64,000 bases of DNA, from NCBI RefSeq assembly GCF_000374105.1, contig NZ_KB893650.1, forward strand, positions 366,862-430,861, given 5' to 3'. Shown here piece after piece: positions 55,015 through 64,000 of the stretch. The notes under the pieces are model-generated. The model saw nothing but the letters and a program-made list of their open reading frames with translations, did not search any database and had not been told where the DNA came from. The position numbers were made by a program, and so were the translations under genes. Origin of the DNA: Kangiella aquimarina DSM 16071. Lineage in GTDB: Bacteria; Pseudomonadota; Gammaproteobacteria; Enterobacterales; Kangiellaceae. Positions within the stretch are counted from its first letter, which is position 1. Each line of letters starts with the position of its first letter.

Positions 55015-55764
55015 ATGTCAGAAAAGAATACCGAAAATTTAGAAGCCATTTTTGTTGATTGTGAAGTTACCCTGGTGCGCCGAATTGGCCGCGATGTGTA
55101 CTGGGTGCAATTGACTCCAACGAAAGGCAGCTTACCCTCTTTCACTGCGGGTCAATATTTGATGCTGGAGCTGGATGATGGATCTTTGTGCCCATTTTCG
55201 ATCGCCAGTTCACCCTTGCAGGATATACTGGAACTGCACATCCGTCGCCTGCCTGGTCATGACGCTGCCGATAAAATCGTTAGCCAATTGAAACATCGAA
55301 ACCTGGTCAGAGTGCAGATGCCATACGGAGAGTGCGTGCTGACTGACTCAGATAGACCAGCGGTATTCATTGCCGGCGGAACAGGTTTTGCCCCGTTTCA
55401 TTCCATTATCAAGACAGCATTGAAAAACGGTGATCAGCGTGAATTGACTTTGTATTGGGGCGCGCAAACTTCTGCGGATCTCTACCTATTAGAAGAGCCT
55501 CAAGCCTGGGCTAATGAGTTTGATCGCTTCAGTTTTATTCCTGTTCTATCGGGACTTGATGAGCAATGGCAGGGCCGTAAGGGTTTTGTCCATCATGCCT
55601 TCATGCTCGATCATGATGATATAACCAACATGGATATTTACGTGGGCGGTTCTGAACCTATGGTGATGTCTGTCTATCAGGATTTGTTGGATAGGAATGT
55701 AGCTAAAGAATCTATTCATTCCGACATTCTGAATATTAAGCGCGAGATGGGTCTACTGGACTAG
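55015..55764 (+). CDS. fre: NAD(P)H-flavin reductase
   Basis: Ferredoxin-reductase-like protein that reduces free flavins with NAD(P)H. The flavin-binding motif CPFSIASSP (with R-x-x-S replaced by F-S) and the NAD-binding GGTGFAPFHSI are present; 249 residues (E. coli Fre 233). It follows ubiD after 11 bp and converges on the polyene cluster. It could also supply FADH2 to flavin-dependent enzymes, including the oxidoreductase of the neighbouring cluster; that link is speculative. Confidence 0.9.
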   Translation: MSEKNTENLEAIFVDCEVTLVRRIGRDVYWVQLTPTKGSLPSFTAGQYLMLELDDGSLCPFSIASSPLQDILELHIRRLPGHDAADKIVSQLKHRNLVRVQMPYGECVLTDSDRPAVFIAGGTGFAPFHSIIKTALKNGDQRELTLYWGAQTSADLYLLEEPQAWANEFDRFSFIPVLSGLDEQWQGRKGFVHHAFMLDHDDITNMDIYVGGSEPMVMSVYQDLLDRNVAKESIHSDILNIKREMGLLD

Positions 55765-55768
55765 ACCC
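55749..55768. terminator. Weak hairpin over the fre stop codon
   Basis: A perfect 7-bp stem GGGTCTA / TAGACCC with loop CTGGAC spans the end of fre, including its stop codon, 17 bp from the end of the convergent ketosynthase gene. No T-run follows on either strand. Confidence 0.35.
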
Positions 55769-55784
55769 CATTCTACTGGACCAT

Positions 55785-57002
55785 TTACACTCTTTTGAAT
55801 ATAAGCGACGTGTTGATGCCTCCAAAGGCAAAGTTATTACTCATAATAAATTCGTTATCCATACTCCTGTCCAGCTCAGTAATGTAATCAAGCTCGGCGC
55901 ATTCAGGGTCAATTTCAGAGAGATTAACCGTTGGTGCGTACCAGTTATTGCGCATCATCTCGATGGATAACCAGGCTTCAATGGCACCGCAAGCTCCAAG
56001 GGTGTGGCCAAAATAGCTTTTCAATGAACTGATAGGAACTGAGCGATTGAAAACGGCGCGTGTCGCGTGAGACTCTGCTACATCTCCTCTGTCGGTTGCT
56101 GTGCCATGCGCACTGACATAACCAATGGCATCGGCAGTTAAACCTGCGTCCTGTAAAGCAAGTTGCATCGCCTGAGACATGGTTTCTTGCTGAGGTTGGG
56201 TGACATGAGCGCCATCGGAGTTACAGCCAAAACCAACCACCTCTGCGAGAATTTCAGCGCCTCGGGATATCGCATGATCATAGTCTTCAAGGATCAAGGT
56301 TCCAGCACCCTCTCCTATTACAAGACCATCCCTATTTTTATCAAAGGGTCGTGGTGTTAGCTCGGGATGTTGATTATTAATGGACGTAGCGAATAGAGAA
56401 TCAAAAACGGCACCTTGAGTAATGCATAGCTCTTCAGCACCTCCAGCAATCATAATTTTCTGTCGGCCAAACTTAATGGCCTCATAGGCATAACCAATAC
56501 CCTGGCTGCCTGAAGTACAGGCGCTGCTGGTTGGAATGATGCGACCTTTGCAACCAAAAAATACACCCATATTGACGGGAGCGGTGTGACTCATCATTTC
56601 AACGTAAGAAGTTGAGGTAAAGCCGGTCATTGGCCCACCTTTGATCAAATCGCCAAACACCGGGATGGTGCGAGTACTTCCAGAAGAAGAGCCGTAAGCG
56701 ATTCCGGTAGCGCCATTAGTCAAGAAGTCGCTTTCTAGCAGGCCAGCTTCGGCCAGAGCCTGTTGGGTTGCGCAAGTCGCCAACAGAGAAACGCGCCCCA
56801 TGCTGCGGATCCGTTTGCGTGGTAATTTTGGAAAGGTGTAATCGACCGGTGCCGCCAGGCTGGTGCGTAGACCCTCACAGGCCTCCCATTGAGGCATCAC
56901 TTGAACCGCATTTTTTCCTTGAGCCAGCTTACCTTGTATGGCCTGCCACTGCTCGCCAAAAGCAGTGATGCCGGACATGCCGGTAATAACAACGCGTGAC
57001 AT
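55785..57002 (-). CDS. Beta-ketoacyl-ACP synthase, ApeR-like
   Basis: Thiolase-fold ketosynthase that condenses acyl and malonyl units on a carrier protein. The full Cys-His-His triad is present: SACTSGSQ (Cys near 165), HGTATDRGD (near 300) and FGHTLGACG (near 335), with NNFAFGGIN at the end. 405 residues. In aryl polyene clusters the equivalent gene product, ApeR, stands last beside the ketoreductase. Its ATG overlaps the stop of the ketoreductase gene by one base. It is the last gene of the cluster here. Confidence 0.9.
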   Translation of the reverse strand: MSRVVITGMSGITAFGEQWQAIQGKLAQGKNAVQVMPQWEACEGLRTSLAAPVDYTFPKLPRKRIRSMGRVSLLATCATQQALAEAGLLESDFLTNGATGIAYGSSSGSTRTIPVFGDLIKGGPMTGFTSTSYVEMMSHTAPVNMGVFFGCKGRIIPTSSACTSGSQGIGYAYEAIKFGRQKIMIAGGAEELCITQGAVFDSLFATSINNQHPELTPRPFDKNRDGLVIGEGAGTLILEDYDHAISRGAEILAEVVGFGCNSDGAHVTQPQQETMSQAMQLALQDAGLTADAIGYVSAHGTATDRGDVAESHATRAVFNRSVPISSLKSYFGHTLGACGAIEAWLSIEMMRNNWYAPTVNLSEIDPECAELDYITELDRSMDNEFIMSNNFAFGGINTSLIFKRV

Positions 57003-57727
57003 CAGGCCATTCCTCCATTAACGGAAATCACCTGACGAGTAAGATAGCCCGCAGTATCAGAAAAGAGGTAGGACACCAGTCCCGCTATTTCTTCAGGTTT
57101 GCCCATTCGCCTGGCAGGAATCATTTTCATTGCTTCGCCTGCAAGTTCATCATCGACCATATCGGTTTCGATAAGTCCGGGCGCGACACAGTTTACGGTA
57201 ATTTTTCGTCTTGCCAATTCTACGGCAAGAGCTTTGGTAGCACCGATCAGCCCCGCTTTAGAGGCACTGTAGTTAACCTGGCCACGGTTACCGAGAACAC
57301 CTGAGACGGATGACATCACAACAATTCTACCGCCCTGCTTTTCACGAACCATCGGCATCACAAGCGGTTTCACAACATTGTAGAAGCCATCCAGGTTGGT
57401 ATGAATGACATCGTCCCAATCGGAATCAGAAAGAGCAGGAAAGGCATTGTCACGAGTGATCCCAGCATTACAGACTACGCCATAATAGGCACCATTTTGC
57501 TCAATATCTGACGTTAAGGCTTGCTGTGTTTGTTCGCGATCGGCAATATCAAACTGAAGCAATTGCGCCTGACCGCCTGCCTGCTGAATCTCTTCGATGG
57601 TTTCATTTGCCTGCTGTATACCAGAACGACAATGCACAGTTACTGAAAACCCACTTTTAGCCAGTTGCAGGGCAATACTTTTGCCAATTCCTCGACTAGA
57701 ACCTGTGACTAATACTCTTCTACTCAT
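57002..57727 (-). CDS. 3-oxoacyl-ACP reductase, FabG/ApeQ-like
   Basis: Short-chain dehydrogenase that reduces the keto group after each condensation using NADPH. 241 residues with TGSSRGIG (residues 8-15), NAG (near 92), the catalytic Ser (MSSVSGVLG) and YSASK (near 152), ending in VNGGMA as FabG does. It lies between the dehydratase gene (13 bp) and the ketosynthase gene (1-bp overlap), so it is specific to this cluster and not the housekeeping fabG. Confidence 0.92.
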   Translation of the reverse strand: MSRRVLVTGSSRGIGKSIALQLAKSGFSVTVHCRSGIQQANETIEEIQQAGGQAQLLQFDIADREQTQQALTSDIEQNGAYYGVVCNAGITRDNAFPALSDSDWDDVIHTNLDGFYNVVKPLVMPMVREKQGGRIVVMSSVSGVLGNRGQVNYSASKAGLIGATKALAVELARRKITVNCVAPGLIETDMVDDELAGEAMKMIPARRMGKPEEIAGLVSYLFSDTAGYLTRQVISVNGGMA

Positions 57728-57739
57728 AGCAAAGATCTC

Positions 57740-58216
57740 TTAATTTAGCAGTTGTGTCTGATCGCTGGTTTCAAATACATTCAGTTTAGCGGCGCAAACA
57801 CACTGGTTGTTCTGCACAATAGAGCAATCAAATGAACCTAAGCCGGAATCATCCATATACAACTCTTTGATTTGAACAGTGTATGTTTGGTTGTTATTAA
57901 ATTGTTGCTGAAAAAGCTCGAGTTTTCGGGTTCCTAATAAAAAGCCAAGATTTACCGGCTGATTGACCAGAAATGCCCTGATACCCGCCAAAGCTGCTAT
58001 TGCCTGAGCCATATACTCAACACCTACCCAGCTTTCTATGCCTGGAATGTCCGTTTGAAAAAAACGACTTTCAGCTGAAACTGAAAATTCAGCTACCAGC
58101 GAGGATTCATCGAAATCGACAATCTTATCAATCAAAACCATGGGTGCCGAATGAGGGACAAACTCAGACACAGGTTTCGATAAAATAATGGGTTTTTGTG
58201 CTTCTATCGATTGCAT
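57740..58216 (-). CDS. Hotdog-fold 3-hydroxyacyl dehydratase, ApeP-like
   Basis: 158 residues of hotdog fold. Typical ApeP features are FVPHSAPMVLID near the N-terminus and WVGVEYMAQAIAALAG with Glu67 on the central helix. It has only one histidine (His22); the histidine of the FabZ HFPGxP motif is missing (the place reads FFQTDIPG). It should remove water to form the conjugated double bonds, possibly as a partner of a second dehydratase outside the window. A GAGGAAG ribosome-binding site stands 5 bases before the ATG. Confidence 0.85.
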   Translation of the reverse strand: MQSIEAQKPIILSKPVSEFVPHSAPMVLIDKIVDFDESSLVAEFSVSAESRFFQTDIPGIESWVGVEYMAQAIAALAGIRAFLVNQPVNLGFLLGTRKLELFQQQFNNNQTYTVQIKELYMDDSGLGSFDCSIVQNNQCVCAAKLNVFETSDQTQLLN

Positions 58217-58225
58217 ATTACTTCC

Positions 58226-59419
58226 TCATGAGCGGCCGATTATAACACTGACGTTGTTGCCGCCAAAGGCGAAAGAGTTACTCATCGCAATGGATAAGTC
58301 GCTGCAATGATGTTCAGAGCTTGCCAGTGTTAAGGGCGGAATTTGCTGATCATAGTGGCCATCATATGCATGTTTAGGTAAGGAATACTTTGGTCCCTGC
58401 TGATTCAGAGCCAGCCAGCAGAAGGCAAGTTCTGTGGCACCAGCTGCGCCCAGTGTATGACCGGTGAGCGGTTTGGTTGAACTGACCATGGTGGTGGTGG
58501 GAAGCACCTGATGTACGGCTTTTCCCTCCATCAAATCGTTAAGTTCAGTGCCTGTGCCATGAAGATTGAGATAATCAACGTCATCTGAACTAATGCCTGC
58601 GTCAGATAGTGCCATCTGCATGGAGGATACAGCACCAGCACCTTCAGGATGGGGTGCTGAAATGTGGTGAGCATCAGAGGACTCGCCAACGCCAAGCAAT
58701 GCAACTTCAGACTTCTCTCGAGACATAATAAAAAGTGCAGCCCCTTCTCCGATATTGATTCCCTTTCGATTAGCACTAAAAGGCAGGCATAAATCGGAAG
58801 ATATGGCTTCCAGTGAGTCAAAGCCATTCAGAGTCATATCGCACAAAGAATCTGAACCGCCGACAATCACTGCATCGCAAAGATCATTTTCGATTAAGCT
58901 GCGTGCCGAAGCAAAAACTTTCCCGCTGGATGAACAGGCAGTAGAGATGCAATAAGCCGGCCCCTGCAGTTGAAGGTAGTCCTTGATAAAGTCTGCTGGA
59001 GAAGACATCTCAATCTGGGAATAGTCAAAATCGTCAGGAAAATGGCCAGATAGGGAGTATTTTTGCAAGGCTTGCTCCCCTTCGGCAATACCAGAGGTGC
59101 TGGTTCCGATAATCACCCCAATGCGATGGTTAGGGTATTGCTCAAGCATTTCTTTGAGCTGAGTGGATAGTTGTTGCAGGCAATGATGAACCAGTCGGTT
59201 ATTGCGGGTGTTATGCTTTAAATAAGGTTCCGGTATGGTTGGTAACTCAAGCGCAACCTGCCCGACCAGGAAAGTGCGGCCAGTAGCCGGTGATAGATAT
59301 GACTGCATGCCCGATGTGTCCGCTTGGATCAATTTAGAAAAGACTGACTGATGATCAGCTCCCAGGGCATTGATACAGGCCATATGATTAAGATAAACCA
59401 TCTGCTTATTCTGGGTCAT
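58226..59419 (-). CDS. Beta-ketoacyl-ACP synthase, ApeO-like
   Basis: Second ketosynthase of the cluster with an intact triad: STACSSSGK (Cys), HGTGTELND (His) and TGHTLGAAGATE (His), and NSFAFGGNN near the end. In aryl polyene systems ApeO is the chain-extending enzyme and works with a chain-length partner, ApeC, which is not in this window. I start at ATG 59419 (397 residues); a TTG at 59449 would give a 44-bp overlap with the gene before it, while the ATG gives 14 bp. Confidence 0.88.
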   Translation of the reverse strand: MTQNKQMVYLNHMACINALGADHQSVFSKLIQADTSGMQSYLSPATGRTFLVGQVALELPTIPEPYLKHNTRNNRLVHHCLQQLSTQLKEMLEQYPNHRIGVIIGTSTSGIAEGEQALQKYSLSGHFPDDFDYSQIEMSSPADFIKDYLQLQGPAYCISTACSSSGKVFASARSLIENDLCDAVIVGGSDSLCDMTLNGFDSLEAISSDLCLPFSANRKGINIGEGAALFIMSREKSEVALLGVGESSDAHHISAPHPEGAGAVSSMQMALSDAGISSDDVDYLNLHGTGTELNDLMEGKAVHQVLPTTTMVSSTKPLTGHTLGAAGATELAFCWLALNQQGPKYSLPKHAYDGHYDQQIPPLTLASSEHHCSDLSIAMSNSFAFGGNNVSVIIGRS

Positions 59420-59990
59420 GCTGCGTCTCTTCAATGGATATGGGGTCAATCAGTAAACTATAGCCACGCTCTAAATGCTGAAAATGAATCTGGCCTTGGT
59501 AGAACTCTGGGTCAGTATATTCAATCCGGATGACTTCCTTCTGATCACGCATAATCAACCGTTGTGTGGCATCAGGCTGCACCAGTTCTGCCCCTGAAAG
59601 AGCTTGGTTAATGGATGAGGCAGGCCACAGACTTAGCTGCATATCGGCCAGCAAATACTCCGGTTTTAATCCATCATCAGTGGGTAATCCGGAAGCGGTA
59701 ATCTGGCCTGCGGTCAATTGTATGGAAAAAAGACGGGTTCCAGTGGCGCTTAATCCGACCATAACCAATTGCTGGGCGCTGACTTCGGTTTGAAACAGAA
59801 GGTCATGTAACTCATTGTTATAATTGACCTGAGCACTTTGTAACAACTGAAAGTCATTAGTAAAAGGGTGGCTGGTGATTAATTGAAAATCAACGCCCTG
59901 AGCAATCGTTACAGTTTGACGATCGCTAACATAGGTGGAGCTACAGCCCCAAAACAAGAGGCTTAGAAAAAGGATTAGGAGGCTGCGCAT
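59406..59990 (-). CDS. DUF3261 lipoprotein of the polyene cluster
   Basis: A 194-residue lipoprotein: signal peptide with Cys16 after LFWG (an unusual Trp at the -2 position of the lipobox), then a beta-rich domain with GVDFQLITSHPF and RLFSIQLTAGQITASG. DUF3261 lipoproteins recur in aryl polyene clusters (ApeN position) and are thought to take part in moving the product to the outer membrane; the exact role is unknown. It overlaps both neighbours. Confidence 0.8.
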   Translation of the reverse strand: MRSLLILFLSLLFWGCSSTYVSDRQTVTIAQGVDFQLITSHPFTNDFQLLQSAQVNYNNELHDLLFQTEVSAQQLVMVGLSATGTRLFSIQLTAGQITASGLPTDDGLKPEYLLADMQLSLWPASSINQALSGAELVQPDATQRLIMRDQKEVIRIEYTDPEFYQGQIHFQHLERGYSLLIDPISIEETQHDPE

Positions 59991-61231
59991 AGTTGTCCTA
60001 AGGTATTAAGTCGACGCTCAGTCTGTTGAACGAATGGGTTTGTGGTGTCCCAGGCATAGCCGGCCAGAACGGAGCACACCATTGCTCTGATATTCTCCGG
60101 TGCAGACTCATAATGGATAATGTTCTGTAACTGTCCGTCATACCAGGATTGAACAAAAGCCTTAAAAGTATCTACCCCTTGCTGTAATGGTGTCGCAAAT
60201 TCAGATTCCCAGCAAACATCTTGACCTCTGAATTGCTTAAACAGGGCATCAGCCGCTAATTTCGCTGATTTGAAGGCTATGGTTACGCCTGAAGAAAATA
60301 TAGGATCAAGAAACTCACCGGCATTACCAAGCAAAGCAAAGCGCTCACCATACAATTGCTTAACGTTGGAGGAATAAGCGGTAATGTGCTGAACGGGAGA
60401 AGCCTTTTTGGCACCCTTCAACAAGTCCTGAAAACGAACAGTCTGTTGAATGGCAGTATCCAGTGTCTGCTCATGATTGGATTGATCGTGGCCAAGAGCC
60501 TCGAAAAACTCGGGTCTGGCAACACAGCCTAATGAGGAGGTGCCGTCTGCGAAAGGAATCAGCCAATACCAGACGTCCTGATGCTGAGGATGGGTTTCTA
60601 TCAGTATTTTATTACGATCATAGTTATGACAGCTGATGTTGTCTTTTATATGGCAGAACACAGAACTTCTTACAGGGAAATCACTTGGCTGGATTAAGTT
60701 TAACAGTCTAGGCAGAACTTTAGCGAAACCACTGGCATCCAGAACAAACTCTGCAGATATCTGTTCAACTTCTCCTTGTTCGTTTTCAACGCTTAACTCG
60801 CATTTGTCATCAAATATGGCTTCAGTTACGGAGTGGCCAAAGCGGAACTCCGCCCCCTGCTCTTGCACCAGCTGAACAAGCAGATGATCGAACTGCGCAC
60901 GCTTAACCTGAAAAGTATCACAGGGTCCTTCGCTAAATTTCTGTTCAAAATCAAAATAGCAGTAGTGCTGATCGGCGAAAAAAGCCGCACCATTCTTAAA
61001 TTGAAATCCAAGCTCGGGAGCGGCCTGCTTAATCGCATCAAGAAGATTAGCCTGTTGCAGATAAACCATGGATTGCGGTAACAGGCTTTCACCGATTGAA
61101 AACCGGGGAAAGTGTTGCTTTTCAACGACCAGAACATTGAGCTGGCCCTGGGTAAGCAAAGAAGCAGCCAGAGCACCGGCAGGTCCGGCCCCAATAATGA
61201 CAACATCATAGTGCGACTGCGGTTTATCCAT
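59975..61231 (-). CDS. FAD-dependent oxidoreductase, flavin halogenase-like
   Basis: A 418-residue flavoprotein of the tryptophan-halogenase superfamily. FAD is bound by GAGPAG (residues 15-20) and the later LLGNAGEFLDPIFSSGV (300-316). The halogenase hallmark WxWxIP appears as WYWLIP (221-226), and Lys79 in FQFKNGAAFF aligns with the halogenase lysine region. Related proteins occur in xanthomonadin and aryl polyene clusters. Halogenase or another polyene- or ring-oxidising activity are both possible. It overlaps MMPL upstream by 8 bp and DUF3261 downstream by 16 bp. Confidence 0.85.
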   Translation of the reverse strand: MDKPQSHYDVVIIGAGPAGALAASLLTQGQLNVLVVEKQHFPRFSIGESLLPQSMVYLQQANLLDAIKQAAPELGFQFKNGAAFFADQHYCYFDFEQKFSEGPCDTFQVKRAQFDHLLVQLVQEQGAEFRFGHSVTEAIFDDKCELSVENEQGEVEQISAEFVLDASGFAKVLPRLLNLIQPSDFPVRSSVFCHIKDNISCHNYDRNKILIETHPQHQDVWYWLIPFADGTSSLGCVARPEFFEALGHDQSNHEQTLDTAIQQTVRFQDLLKGAKKASPVQHITAYSSNVKQLYGERFALLGNAGEFLDPIFSSGVTIAFKSAKLAADALFKQFRGQDVCWESEFATPLQQGVDTFKAFVQSWYDGQLQNIIHYESAPENIRAMVCSVLAGYAWDTTNPFVQQTERRLNTLGQLCAAS

Positions 61232-63560
61232 TATCTAGTCCTTTAATACGATAGAGGCGATTGCCCACAATGGGGGAAAGAAGAAATACGGTCAAGATAC
61301 CGGTTAACATGGTGAGACCAAAGGCATGGATTGCCGGAGTCTCACTGAGTGACAGTAGACCGAATGAAAGGAAGGTTGTAGTCGCTGATAAGGTCACTGC
61401 AAGGTGAATATAAATAGAGCGTGATTGTGCTTCAGCATAGAACAGGCCGTAATCAATACCTATGCCAACGACTAGAAATAACGCCAGTGTACTGAACAGA
61501 TTAAAACTGCCAGCAATTAGGGTGGTCACGATAATCGCGACTGAGGCAGCAATAATGGGCGCGAAAATAACGTGGTAAGCAATTTTAATTGTGTACTTGG
61601 CCAGCAGCAGAGCAAATATTGCCAGGCAGGCCAGTAGTAGCATTAGAGTGGCAAGTTCTCGGTAATTGGAGAACAGCTCTGAAACTTTATCGACCTTATT
61701 GATAAAGTAAAGATCATCGTGAGTTTGTGCTAATTGTTCCAGGGCAGCCAAATCTTGAATGTTAGAGATGCTGATAATGGCTGCAGAATCGCCTTCAATC
61801 TTGCCTAACCACAGATACGATAGCCTTTGTCCTATAGGAGAATCTAGCCAGTCTGATAGGGAAAGATAGTCACTTTCTGAAGCCTTATAAGTATCAAACA
61901 ATGTCTGATAACTGGATGGGTCTAACAGACCGGTATCAAATAGCGATGACAGTTTAGATTGAGAAAGTTGCTGGCCAATCAGCTGATAATCGCTTTGCTG
62001 TTGAGCGCGGCTGGGTACCCATTGAGCCAGGTGGCTATATTGATCGATTACCTTTCGTGATACTAGCTCATCTAGATCATCATTGTATTGGCTTAAGGTT
62101 TGTAACAGCTGTTCATCAGATTCAGCACGAACCAGAAAAAACTGGTTGGTTGCCGGTGCTGAGATAATTCGGGTTAGTTCCGCTTCCTGATCGGTAAGCT
62201 GCTGAGGGGCTGCCTGTAGCTGCCTGATATTGTCATTAGCCCGGTCGGTATCGAGTAACAGGTAACCCGCAAAAACAGGTAATCCCAATAAAATGATAAA
62301 AAGTGCAGGATGAGCGAGTTTGCGACTGAAAGACTGATGACCTGTTAAAAGAGCGATAAATGGGCCTGGCGTGGAAACCTTGTATTGGAAAACATCGAAC
62401 AATAAGGACACCGTTAAAAAAGCGCCAATCAACCCTGCAATACAGAAAATAGCCATTTGCTGCAGACCAGGGAATGGAGCCATAAACAGCGCAATATAGC
62501 CAATGATGCTTGAAACAAGCCCCATCAGAATAGCTATAAAAATATGTGACAAGGGACGCCGGTGGTGAACGGCGCTTGAAAAATAGTGAAACGCATAATC
62601 AACTGCTACCCCTACCAGACTCGCGCCAAAAACCATCGTCAGGATATGAATTGAGCCAAAAACAATATGAACAGTTGTAAAGCCGATAAAGATTCCAGTG
62701 GCTAATGAGGTCATTGTCATTAGAAGCGGAGCTGTGCTTCTAAACGCAACAATCAATAGAGCGATAACACCAAGTAAGGAACCTAAGCCGATTGTTGATA
62801 TTTCTGATTTGGCAGAGGCTGCAGCATATTGGGCATAAAAAAGTGCACCGGTAGTTAAAAGCTCAACCTGGGGATTTTGTTCAGAGAATTGATCAAGTAA
62901 GCCGGCAATCTCTTCTTGTGTCCTGGTATCAAAGGGTGACTCTTTGAGACGCGCAGACAGAATCAGAACCTGCTGCCCCGAGTCGATAACTTTTAAAAAA
63001 TCGCCAACGACCTGTGTGTTGCTATGTCTAGAAGAACTATTGGCAACAGCCTGCTGTAAGTAACGGTAGGATAATAGCAAAGGATCCTGTGCAATCAGTG
63101 GTAATAATTGACCCGATAGCGGCGAGTAGATCATTTGTAGACTATGTTCAACAAAGGGCTCAGCACCCTCTGTTAACATCAGGCCTCTGTCTTTGCTGTT
63201 TAATAAATGAAAACGATGCTTGAAGATGAGTTCAGCAATGATCTCCTGCTCAGCCTCTGAGATTTGTGTGTTAAATCGTTCTATCAGTTGCGTCTGCTGC
63301 AACTGATTAACCAGAGAAGCGGCCACCGGCTCGAGCTCATTGGACGAATTGCTTTTTAGTCCAATTATGATCTGCTTGAAATTGTTATCGGAAAACTGAG
63401 CAAAGGCTTTTTCTGCAAAAGGATCAACTTCAGTTTCTGGTAACAGTTTCAGGATATTGGTTTCGACCTGTATGCCATCATGAAGCTGTTTATAAAACAG
63501 ACCTGCTGAAAGAAGGATAATTAATGCCCAAATGAGGGCTTTAACTTTAGTGGATGACAT
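61224..63560 (-). CDS. MMPL/RND-family exporter
   Basis: A 778-residue inner-membrane transporter with two similar halves: each has a membrane helix, a large periplasmic domain (about 30-240 and 420-600) and five further helices. GVAVDYAFHYFSSA in the first half and GIGIDYGLFYAEAQ in the second are the proton-relay segments with acidic residues. ApeM-type exporters in aryl polyene clusters have this layout and are presumed to move the lipid-linked product out. It overlaps the LolA-like gene by 14 bp. Confidence 0.88.
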   Translation of the reverse strand: MSSTKVKALIWALIILLSAGLFYKQLHDGIQVETNILKLLPETEVDPFAEKAFAQFSDNNFKQIIIGLKSNSSNELEPVAASLVNQLQQTQLIERFNTQISEAEQEIIAELIFKHRFHLLNSKDRGLMLTEGAEPFVEHSLQMIYSPLSGQLLPLIAQDPLLLSYRYLQQAVANSSSRHSNTQVVGDFLKVIDSGQQVLILSARLKESPFDTRTQEEIAGLLDQFSEQNPQVELLTTGALFYAQYAAASAKSEISTIGLGSLLGVIALLIVAFRSTAPLLMTMTSLATGIFIGFTTVHIVFGSIHILTMVFGASLVGVAVDYAFHYFSSAVHHRRPLSHIFIAILMGLVSSIIGYIALFMAPFPGLQQMAIFCIAGLIGAFLTVSLLFDVFQYKVSTPGPFIALLTGHQSFSRKLAHPALFIILLGLPVFAGYLLLDTDRANDNIRQLQAAPQQLTDQEAELTRIISAPATNQFFLVRAESDEQLLQTLSQYNDDLDELVSRKVIDQYSHLAQWVPSRAQQQSDYQLIGQQLSQSKLSSLFDTGLLDPSSYQTLFDTYKASESDYLSLSDWLDSPIGQRLSYLWLGKIEGDSAAIISISNIQDLAALEQLAQTHDDLYFINKVDKVSELFSNYRELATLMLLLACLAIFALLLAKYTIKIAYHVIFAPIIAASVAIIVTTLIAGSFNLFSTLALFLVVGIGIDYGLFYAEAQSRSIYIHLAVTLSATTTFLSFGLLSLSETPAIHAFGLTMLTGILTVFLLSPIVGNRLYRIKGLDNG

Positions 63561-64000
63561 ATGAACGGAGCTGATTGATCAGATCAGGATCGGTTGATGG
63601 TGAAAGCACCAGTTGAGTTGAATCGCCACTAGCCTCGGTAAATGAGAGCGTTTCTATGTGATTCTGACCGCTGATATTTATATTGGTAATGATGGGTTTC
63701 ATGTCATTGGAACTGGCTTCGAGCTCAATGCTCCAGCGTGTTTCTGTGCAGTCTAAAGCTACAGAAAAGTGGTTATCTAATTTTTCAAAATCACCAGCGA
63801 GAATAGCCAGAAAAGTCGAACTGATCAGCTGACTCATTTTTTGATTATTGTTGGCAGGCGACATGACCGGTTGATCATTTTTATTGAATTGTCTGAGAGT
63901 CTGCTGACCGATTAACAAGGTGCTTTTTATTGGCTGCTGAGTCTGCCAGATGACCTGGTTATCGTCGCTAATTAATAGATAGCCTTTAGAGATCAGAGGT
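63547..64000 (-). CDS. LolA-like periplasmic carrier, 3' part only
   Basis: The frame is open to the right edge of the window; reading from there gives SKGYLLISDDNQVIWQTQQP followed by a short loop and a beta-rich C-terminus, the pattern of outer-membrane lipoprotein carrier LolA family proteins. In aryl polyene clusters a LolA-like protein (ApeL position) precedes the MMPL exporter, as here, and may carry the product across the periplasm. An internal TTG at 63918 is not the real start. The N-terminus and signal peptide lie outside. Confidence 0.8.
   Translation of the reverse strand, partial: PLISKGYLLISDDNQVIWQTQQPIKSTLLIGQQTLRQFNKNDQPVMSPANNNQKMSQLISSTFLAILAGDFEKLDNHFSVALDCTETRWSIELEASSNDMKPIITNINISGQNHIETLSFTEASGDSTQLVLSPSTDPDLINQLRSYVIH

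What the first reader, a model, noticed from the sequence alone, without database searches (positions are those of the whole stretch)
55785..64000. Aryl polyene-type (xanthomonadin-like) cluster running off the right edge
Two intact ketosynthases, a ketoreductase, a hotdog dehydratase, a DUF3261 lipoprotein, an FAD oxidoreductase, an MMPL exporter and a LolA-like protein are packed with 1-16 bp overlaps or short gaps in the order known for the O/P/Q/R and export half of aryl polyene clusters. The carrier proteins, starter-making genes, ApeC partner and acyltransferase are not in the window and should follow to the right. Aryl polyenes are membrane pigments protecting against oxidative damage; this organism may be yellow.
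Basis: partly seen in the sequence, partly recalled or inferred. Interest (0 to 1): 0.7.

Follow-up and report, generated by a model that had tools for sequence, protein, structure and literature searches.

The report
Complete aryl polyene pigment gene cluster
The window ends inside an ordinary, apparently complete gene cluster with which a marine bacterium of the Kangiella group probably makes a yellow, membrane-bound antioxidant pigment (an aryl polyene), starting from an amino acid through a lyase dedicated to the cluster.

Summary
An uninterrupted minus-strand run of 18 genes, ApeC-D-E-F-G-H-I-J-lyase-K-L-M-FAD-N-O-P-Q-R, spans window 72216 to 55785 (extended coordinates). ApeO, ApeC and ApeR have known Ape structures as closest solved relatives. 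It is an aryl polyene (APE) cluster, but not a strict xanthomonadin cluster: two carrier proteins, no chorismatase or methyltransferase among the 18 genes, and an aromatic amino-acid ammonia-lyase instead. The same 18-gene order is in 33 of 80 named loci, so the system is common. Two inferred details deserve testing. The lyase is a clade apart from the genome's HutH-like gene, with an [F/Y]-H selectivity pair and the Gln of Tyr/Phe lyases; it may make 4-coumarate as starter. The FAD enzyme keeps the halogenase Lys and WxWxIP in 65 of 65 and 22 of 22 rows, so the head group may be halogenated. Product, colour and function are untested.

The parts
55785..57002 (-). ApeR, FabB/F-like ketosynthase (C162, H299, H333)
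   Evidence: NCBIfam PRK09116 over cut-off; best PDB hits 4ewg and 7f27, both named ApeR in PMC8358021; triad in 75 of 75 loci
57002..57727 (-). ApeQ, ketoreductase (S140, Y153, K157)
   Evidence: FabG-type NCBIfam models over cut-off; residues in 76 of 76 loci
57740..58216 (-). ApeP, hotdog dehydratase (H22, E67)
   Evidence: Pfam ApeP-like, 71.5 bits; best PDB 6qsr_B; residues in 75 of 75 loci
58226..59449 (-). ApeO, ketosynthase of the ApeO-ApeC pair (C172, H297, H331); a later start is possible
   Evidence: PRK09185 over cut-off; the only PDB hits at 1e-40 are 6qsp_A and 7f28_B
59406..59990 (-). ApeN, DUF3261 LolB-like lipoprotein
   Evidence: PF11659 114.5 bits
59975..61231 (-). FAD-dependent halogenase-type enzyme (K79, W221-x-W223-x-I225-P226)
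   Evidence: PF04820 82.1 bits, CmlS NCBIfam hit below cut-off, PDB 3nix then halogenases, motif conservation
61224..63560 (-). ApeM, RND/MMPL-type transporter
   Evidence: position and homologues in 75 of 80 loci; weak NCBIfam HpnN hit; no Pfam hit
63547..64000 (-). ApeL, LolA-like carrier; the gene runs past the window edge, to 64239 in extended coordinates. The ten further genes of the cluster (ApeK, lyase, ApeJ, I, H, G, F, E, D, C) lie beyond the edge, 64166-72216, and are listed with coordinates in the full report
   Evidence: PF03548; NCBIfam LolA2_flexi below cut-off; rest of the cluster

Best explanation
This is a complete aryl polyene cluster of a lyase-plus-FAD subtype. The dedicated ammonia-lyase deaminates an aromatic amino acid, most likely L-tyrosine, to a hydroxycinnamate (4-coumarate). 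ApeH activates the acid and loads it on carrier protein ApeE. ApeO-ApeC, helped by ApeR, extends it with malonyl units, and ApeQ and ApeI/ApeP reduce and dehydrate each unit to give the conjugated polyene. The FAD enzyme modifies the aromatic head, most likely by halogenation. ApeK assists release or proofreading, ApeD and ApeJ attach the chain to a lipid, and ApeM with ApeL and ApeN move it to the outer membrane, where it acts as a yellow antioxidant. Shown here: gene content, order and conserved catalytic residues. Taken from published work on other APE clusters: the pathway steps. Inferred: lyase substrate, halogenation, colour and function. The confidence given is for the APE identity; I put the tyrosine starter and the halogenation at about 0.6 each.
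For: All 18 genes lie on one strand with overlaps or short gaps. APE families found: ApeP-like, ApeI-like and Ketoacyl-synt_2; Ape structures are the closest solved relatives of ApeO, ApeC and ApeR. The order matches E. coli apeC-R in PMC8253772 Table 1 with two insertions. The identical 18-gene order is in 33 of 80 named loci, and ApeJ-lyase-ApeK are adjacent in 76 of 80. All 13 genomes with this lyase (E <= 1e-120) among 274 of the class also have an ApeP match over cut-off, 12 of 13 within 8 kb of it. The genome has a separate, HutH-like second PF00221 gene. The lyase carries Gln, not the HAL Glu (rule from PMC3992019), and its best PDB relative, a tyrosine aminomutase, also has His at the second selectivity position. 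The FAD enzyme keeps Lys and WxWxIP in 65 of 65 and 22 of 22 rows.
Against: No product, expression or colour data. The genome also has a UbiC-type chorismate lyase, so 4-hydroxybenzoate is available without the ammonia-lyase. The [F/Y]-H pair matches neither the His-first pattern reported for tyrosine lyases nor the SH of the HutH-like rows, so the substrate cannot be read off. FAD and lyase do not always go together: FAD was scored in 65 of 80 loci, and both FAD without lyase and lyase without FAD occur. ApeM has no Pfam hit, ApeH matches PDB adenylating enzymes only in part, and its Lys147 is K in 67 of 77 loci, Q in 6.
Confidence: 0.93

Rival explanations
1. The cluster is an APE cluster, but the starter is 4-hydroxybenzoate from UbiC, as proposed for E. 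coli. The lyase does something else, for example making a free cinnamate or degrading an amino acid.
For: UbiC family member at C1:282427-282966. X. doucetiae ApeH activates 4-HBA according to PMC8253772. APE clusters without this lyase exist.
Against: The lyase lies between apeJ and apeK in 76 of 80 loci and occurs only in ApeP-positive genomes in the 274-genome sample. The best NCBIfam hit of ApeH is a 4-coumarate ligase, but below its cut-off and without an ApeH control from a lyase-free cluster.
Confidence: 0.2
2. The lyase is specific for phenylalanine, or for another aromatic amino acid, so the head group starts as cinnamate and gets its oxygen or halogen later.
For: Phe at the first selectivity position is one of the two PAL patterns in the rule quoted in PMC3992019; Gln422 fits PAL as well as TAL.
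Against: The second position is His in every row examined (26, 80, 25). Head-group hydroxyls of known APEs commonly come from the precursor (PMC8253772). The FAD enzyme has halogenase rather than hydroxylase marks.
Confidence: 0.2
3. The genes make an unusual fatty acid or another polyketide, not an aryl polyene.
For: Single enzymes resemble FabF, FabG and FabZ. ApeQ also matches PF13561, a short-chain dehydrogenase model that bears the name of an enoyl reductase.
Against: The whole conserved set is present, including ApeC, ApeI, an aromatic lyase and the ApeL-M-N export set. ApeQ's two best NCBIfam models, both over cut-off, are keto reductases of the FabG type, and no other gene of the 18 matched a reductase of that kind.
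Confidence: 0.03

Closest known systems
E. coli CFT073 APE cluster (apeA-R; PMC8253772, passages read)
   Same: Genes C to R in the same order
   Different: Here no apeA and apeB (lipoprotein, methyltransferase) next to apeC; a lyase between J and K and an FAD enzyme between M and N
Xenorhabdus doucetiae / Acinetobacter baumannii APE enzymes (PMC8358021, first of four parts and passages read)
   Same: Closest solved structures of ApeO and ApeC, and the second closest of ApeR (after 4ewg, named PpApeR there); 6qsr, which I recall as the X. doucetiae dehydratase pair, is the closest for ApeI and ApeP
   Different: Starter described there is 4-hydroxybenzoate
Xanthomonadin / arcuflavin clusters (PMC3691225, PMC3949708, passages read)
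   Same: Type II aryl polyene PKS; halogenase gene near the KS-CLF in many clusters
   Different: XanB2-type chorismatase makes 3-/4-hydroxybenzoate there; xanthomonadin clusters lack a second carrier protein (PMC8253772)
Flexirubin cluster of Bacteroidota (PMC3992019, passages read)
   Same: Aromatic ammonia-lyase (FlxA, tyrosine) plus ligase starts an aryl polyene; best solved FAD relative is 3nix, which I recall as coming from Cytophaga
   Different: The FlxA NCBIfam model matched far below its cut-off (356.7 against 700 bits); no dialkylresorcinol genes recognised among the 18

Membership tests
Aryl polyene (APE) cluster | KS-chain length factor pair ApeO-ApeC | tested here: met
Aryl polyene (APE) cluster | Second ketosynthase ApeR with intact C-H-H | tested here: met
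Aryl polyene (APE) cluster | Two adjacent carrier proteins with attachment Ser | tested here: met
   Ser in 77 of 77 and 76 of 76 loci
Aryl polyene (APE) cluster | KR plus two hotdog dehydratases ApeI and ApeP | tested here: met
   residues of KR and ApeP checked; for ApeI my script looked at a neighbouring residue, so its active site was not tested across loci
Aryl polyene (APE) cluster | Aromatic acid-activating ligase ApeH | tested here: inconclusive
   an AMP-binding enzyme is at the ApeH position, with homologues in 77 of 80 loci; its substrate cannot be tested here
Aryl polyene (APE) cluster | Export set LolA-like, RND/MMPL, DUF3261 | tested here: met
   ApeM by position and weak hits only
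Aryl polyene (APE) cluster | Produces a yellow aryl polyene carboxylate | not testable with these tools
   needs extraction, absorbance and mass
Xanthomonadin cluster in the strict sense | XanB2-type chorismatase in the cluster | tested here: not met
   none recognised by Pfam among the 18 genes; a whole-genome search with PF21168 found nothing, but its control rang nowhere, so that search is inconclusive
Xanthomonadin cluster in the strict sense | Single carrier protein | tested here: not met
   two are present; no second one in Xanthomonas clusters according to PMC8253772
Flavin-dependent halogenase | Catalytic Lys and WxWxIP | tested here: met
   alignment, conservation; the meaning of the motifs is recalled
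Flavin-dependent halogenase | Halogenates an aromatic substrate | not testable with these tools
   needs an enzyme assay or product mass
Tyrosine ammonia-lyase | MIO triad ASG and Gln (not Glu) at the motif-2 site | tested here: met
Tyrosine ammonia-lyase | His at the first selectivity position | tested here: not met
   Phe or Tyr there, His at the next position; rule from PMC3992019; that column 89 is the rule's first position is my reading

The most novel reading that the evidence does not exclude
A widespread marine branch of APE clusters uses its own ammonia-lyase subclass, marked by an [F/Y]-H selectivity pair not seen in the other lyase rows compared here, together with a head-group halogenase. 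It would make halogenated (in seawater perhaps brominated) polyenes from a hydroxycinnamate rather than from the hydroxybenzoate starter known from E. coli and Xanthomonas.
Probability: 0.3. Interest if true: 0.4.

Novelty: new member of a known kind. Interest (0 to 1): 0.2.

Why it matters
[quoted passage not shown] The useful part is a testable prediction on how many marine APE pathways get their starter and whether their pigments carry a halogen.

Tried and rejected
Strict xanthomonadin membership was rejected: the chorismatase and single-carrier-protein features are not met. The fatty acid or other-polyketide reading was rejected because the APE-specific set is complete. The idea that the lyase is the histidine-degradation enzyme was rejected: a second PF00221 gene with the SH motif is elsewhere in the genome. 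A carotenoid as the pigment has no support: no SQS_PSY (phytoene synthase) family match in the genome, while the control rang in 7 of 14 genomes.

Two separate gains of the cluster within the genus are suggested but not proved. Three genomes (G004, G015, G017) have the cluster without the FAD gene, and the 19-19.5 kb fetched around it show no fre, SBP or rpoH neighbour; in G004, the only one of the three whose usual site was fetched, that site is empty. The lyase tree needs two changes, also by its starred branches, but holding all Kangiella rows together is not rejected (p-AU 0.07). The 991-bp gap at the site in G008 is not a recognisable remnant of the cluster: it holds two other small ORFs, and no APE protein matched L143 at better than E 0.42.

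Led nowhere: a wrong Pfam accession; an E. coli stretch chosen by guessed coordinates that missed the APE genes; the PF21168 search with a silent control. Nine paper searches were made. Those for lyases in APE clusters listed 5 and 4 papers (listings only, none judged relevant by title and abstract start); Kangiella plus aryl polyene gave none; Kangiella plus pigment plus yellow listed 5 and the tyrosine-lyase-with-marine-genera search listed 12 of 1,495, none opened. One search listed 7, of which only PMC8253772 was opened. The 2014 Cell survey of APE clusters (recalled) is not held, so I do not claim that the lyase in APE clusters is unreported. Promoter- and terminator-like patterns over the cluster are not clearly more frequent than in shuffles (21 against 29.0; 19 against 15.2, sd 4.4).

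Mended on re-reading: the distance in G308 is about 56 kb, not 57; ApeQ's PF13561 match is now told; the ApeI residue check is now told as missed. 

Full report
Observation. The eight genes described are present at 55785-64000 on the minus strand, with the domains named, except that the transporter rests on weak hits. The window is G000:C1:366862-430861. The 8,862 bases of L001 that lie inside the window are identical to it, and L001 continues for 9.1 kb beyond it. There the rest of the cluster follows without a break. Transcription runs from ApeC (72216) to ApeR (55785). A terminator-like hairpin of 8 pairs with a T run lies between ApeC and the upstream solute-binding protein gene, though such patterns are not clearly more frequent in this region than in shuffles.

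Genes beyond the window, in extended window coordinates (L001 position plus 55138), all on the minus strand: ApeL 63547-64239 (LolA-like); ApeK 64166-64609 (hotdog thioesterase); lyase 64611-66155 (PF00221, 541.5 bits; A149-S150-G151, F89-H90, Q422); ApeJ 66142-67905 (glycosyltransferase 2 plus acyltransferase); ApeI 67887-68261 (Pfam ApeI-like, 46.7 bits); ApeH 68263-69609 (AMP ligase; best NCBIfam hit 4-coumarate--CoA ligase below cut-off); ApeG 69619-70185 (membrane protein, IspA hit below cut-off); ApeF 70185-70442 and ApeE 70442-70705 (carrier proteins, S43 and S41); ApeD 70680-71507 (acyltransferase PF01553); ApeC 71473-72216 (PF13723, 162.3 bits).

Identity. E. coli genes apeC to apeR have the same order (PMC8253772, Table 1, passages read). 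This cluster differs by lacking apeA and apeB and by two additions, the lyase between J and K and the FAD enzyme between M and N. ApeC matches only the two ApeO-ApeC structures in the PDB at 1e-3. ApeO matches the same two entries only at 1e-40. ApeR's two best hits by far are 4ewg and 7f27 (558 and 504 bits; next 243.5), and PMC8358021 names both as ApeR. ApeI and ApeP match the two chains of 6qsr best. ApeH matches PDB adenylating enzymes only in part. Catalytic residues of ApeR, ApeQ, ApeP, both carrier proteins and the lyase's ASG are the same in every named locus where they were found; in ApeO they are kept except for gaps in 1 to 3 of 75 rows and one Ile. For ApeI the script looked at a neighbouring residue, so that site was not tested across loci. 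ApeH Lys147 is K in 67 of 77.

Organism. The lyase of K. shandongensis (L036) is identical in the tree to that of G018, a genome of the window's genus, and both lie on a contig of 278,760 bases. I therefore take the genus to be Kangiella.

Distribution. Kangiella shandongensis is the closest named one at 81%. In 33 of 80 loci the whole order C-D-E-F-G-H-I-J-lyase-K-L-M-FAD-N-O-P-Q-R is found by tblastn at 1e-3, and J-lyase-K are adjacent in 76 of 80; the exceptions are L053, L064, L103 and L113, the last a 3-kb contig. In 11 loci an FAD match sits divergently upstream of ApeC instead of between M and N, in the otherwise same order. Among 274 genomes of the class, 36 have an ApeP match at 0.001 (28 over cut-off) and 13 have this lyase at 1e-120; all 13 are among the 28. 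In 12 of 13 the two genes are within 8 kb, and in G308 about 56 kb apart. So the lyase goes with APE clusters, and 13 of 28 (or 13 of 36) of those sampled have it.

The lyase. The genome has two PF00221 genes. The other has the SH motif of HutH-like rows (L034). Of 61 genomes searched, own included, 26 have the APE type at 60% identity or more, while all other matches lie at 38% or less. The selectivity stretch reads LTR[F/Y]HGCG in all 26 (20 F, 6 Y), against SH in the 5 HutH-like rows printed. In the 80 named loci the first position is F in 79 and Y in 1, the next is His in 80, and the second motif has Gln in 79 with one gap. In 25 further rows, partly the same genomes, it is 20 F and 5 Y, 25 His, 25 Gln. 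The rule quoted in PMC3992019 (passages read) is Glu for histidine and Gln for tyrosine or phenylalanine lyases, and at the first position His for tyrosine lyases and Phe or His for phenylalanine lyases. The first rule speaks against a histidine lyase. The second is not met for tyrosine, so tyrosine is my inference. It is helped by His at the neighbouring position, as in the tyrosine aminomutase that is the best PDB relative, and by NCBIfam, where a tyrosine lyase model (BagA/FevW) scores highest, though below cut-off and hardly above a histidine-lyase model (411.9 against 410.4 bits). UbiC is also present, so 4-hydroxybenzoate remains a possible starter. The only ACPS-family match in the genome is one 130-aa frame, presumably AcpS, which would have to serve ApeE and ApeF too.

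The FAD enzyme. Its best solved relative is 3nix (300.7 bits, a flavoprotein/dehydrogenase by name). Of the next 13 sequences, 11 are named halogenases by their depositors, the other two being ChlB4 and the alkylhalidase CmlS. The Lys that aligns with the halogenases' Lys and the WxWxIP motif are kept in 65 of 65 named rows and 22 of 22 further rows scoring over 200 bits (the two sets share at least one genome). Halogenase genes beside the KS-CLF of such clusters are already described, and xanthomonadins carry 0-2 bromines (PMC3691225, passages read). Halogenation of this product is therefore plausible but untested. The FAD gene occurs with and without the lyase.

Genome context. In this genus 14 of 20 genomes have ApeP, the same 14 that have the APE lyase. 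In the own genome and nine others the cluster lies between the solute-binding protein gene and fre, and in an eleventh the contig ends before fre. In G008, G010, G012, G016 and G004 the open frames of those two genes are neighbours, 51-75 bp apart except in G008 (991 bp, other ORFs). G004, G015 and G017 carry a cluster without FAD in another place; the usual site was fetched only in G004 of these three. G003 and G011, without ApeP, were not examined at this site. So presence or absence as a block at one site is clear, while a second gain is suggested only.

Conclusion. An ordinary, complete APE cluster. The open points are starter and head-group chemistry, and bench data would decide them.

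Noticed in passing
window 55764-64000 and on to 72500 in extended coordinates; L140-L144: The cluster occupies the junction between a solute-binding protein gene (next to rpoH) and fre-ubiD; the junction is without the cluster in four cluster-less genomes and in G004, whose cluster lies elsewhere.
   Followed up: partly
L001 17186-17205 (beyond the window): Terminator-like hairpin (8 pairs) with T run between the solute-binding protein gene and ApeC, possibly insulating the operon.
   Followed up: no
G000:C2:337668-338018: Only one phosphopantetheinyl transferase (PF01648) match in the genome, so one enzyme may have to activate both fatty-acid and pigment carrier proteins.
   Followed up: partly
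L148-L150, L152, L154, L137-L139: ApeJ is found as two separate open frames in these Kangiella genomes but as one frame in the window's genome.
   Followed up: no
L168, L169 (G308): The APE cluster is split into two parts about 56 kb apart.
   Followed up: no
L053, L064: APE-type lyase genes with few or no recognised ape neighbours in the fetched stretch (Photobacterium chitinilyticum, Idiomarina aquatica).
   Followed up: no
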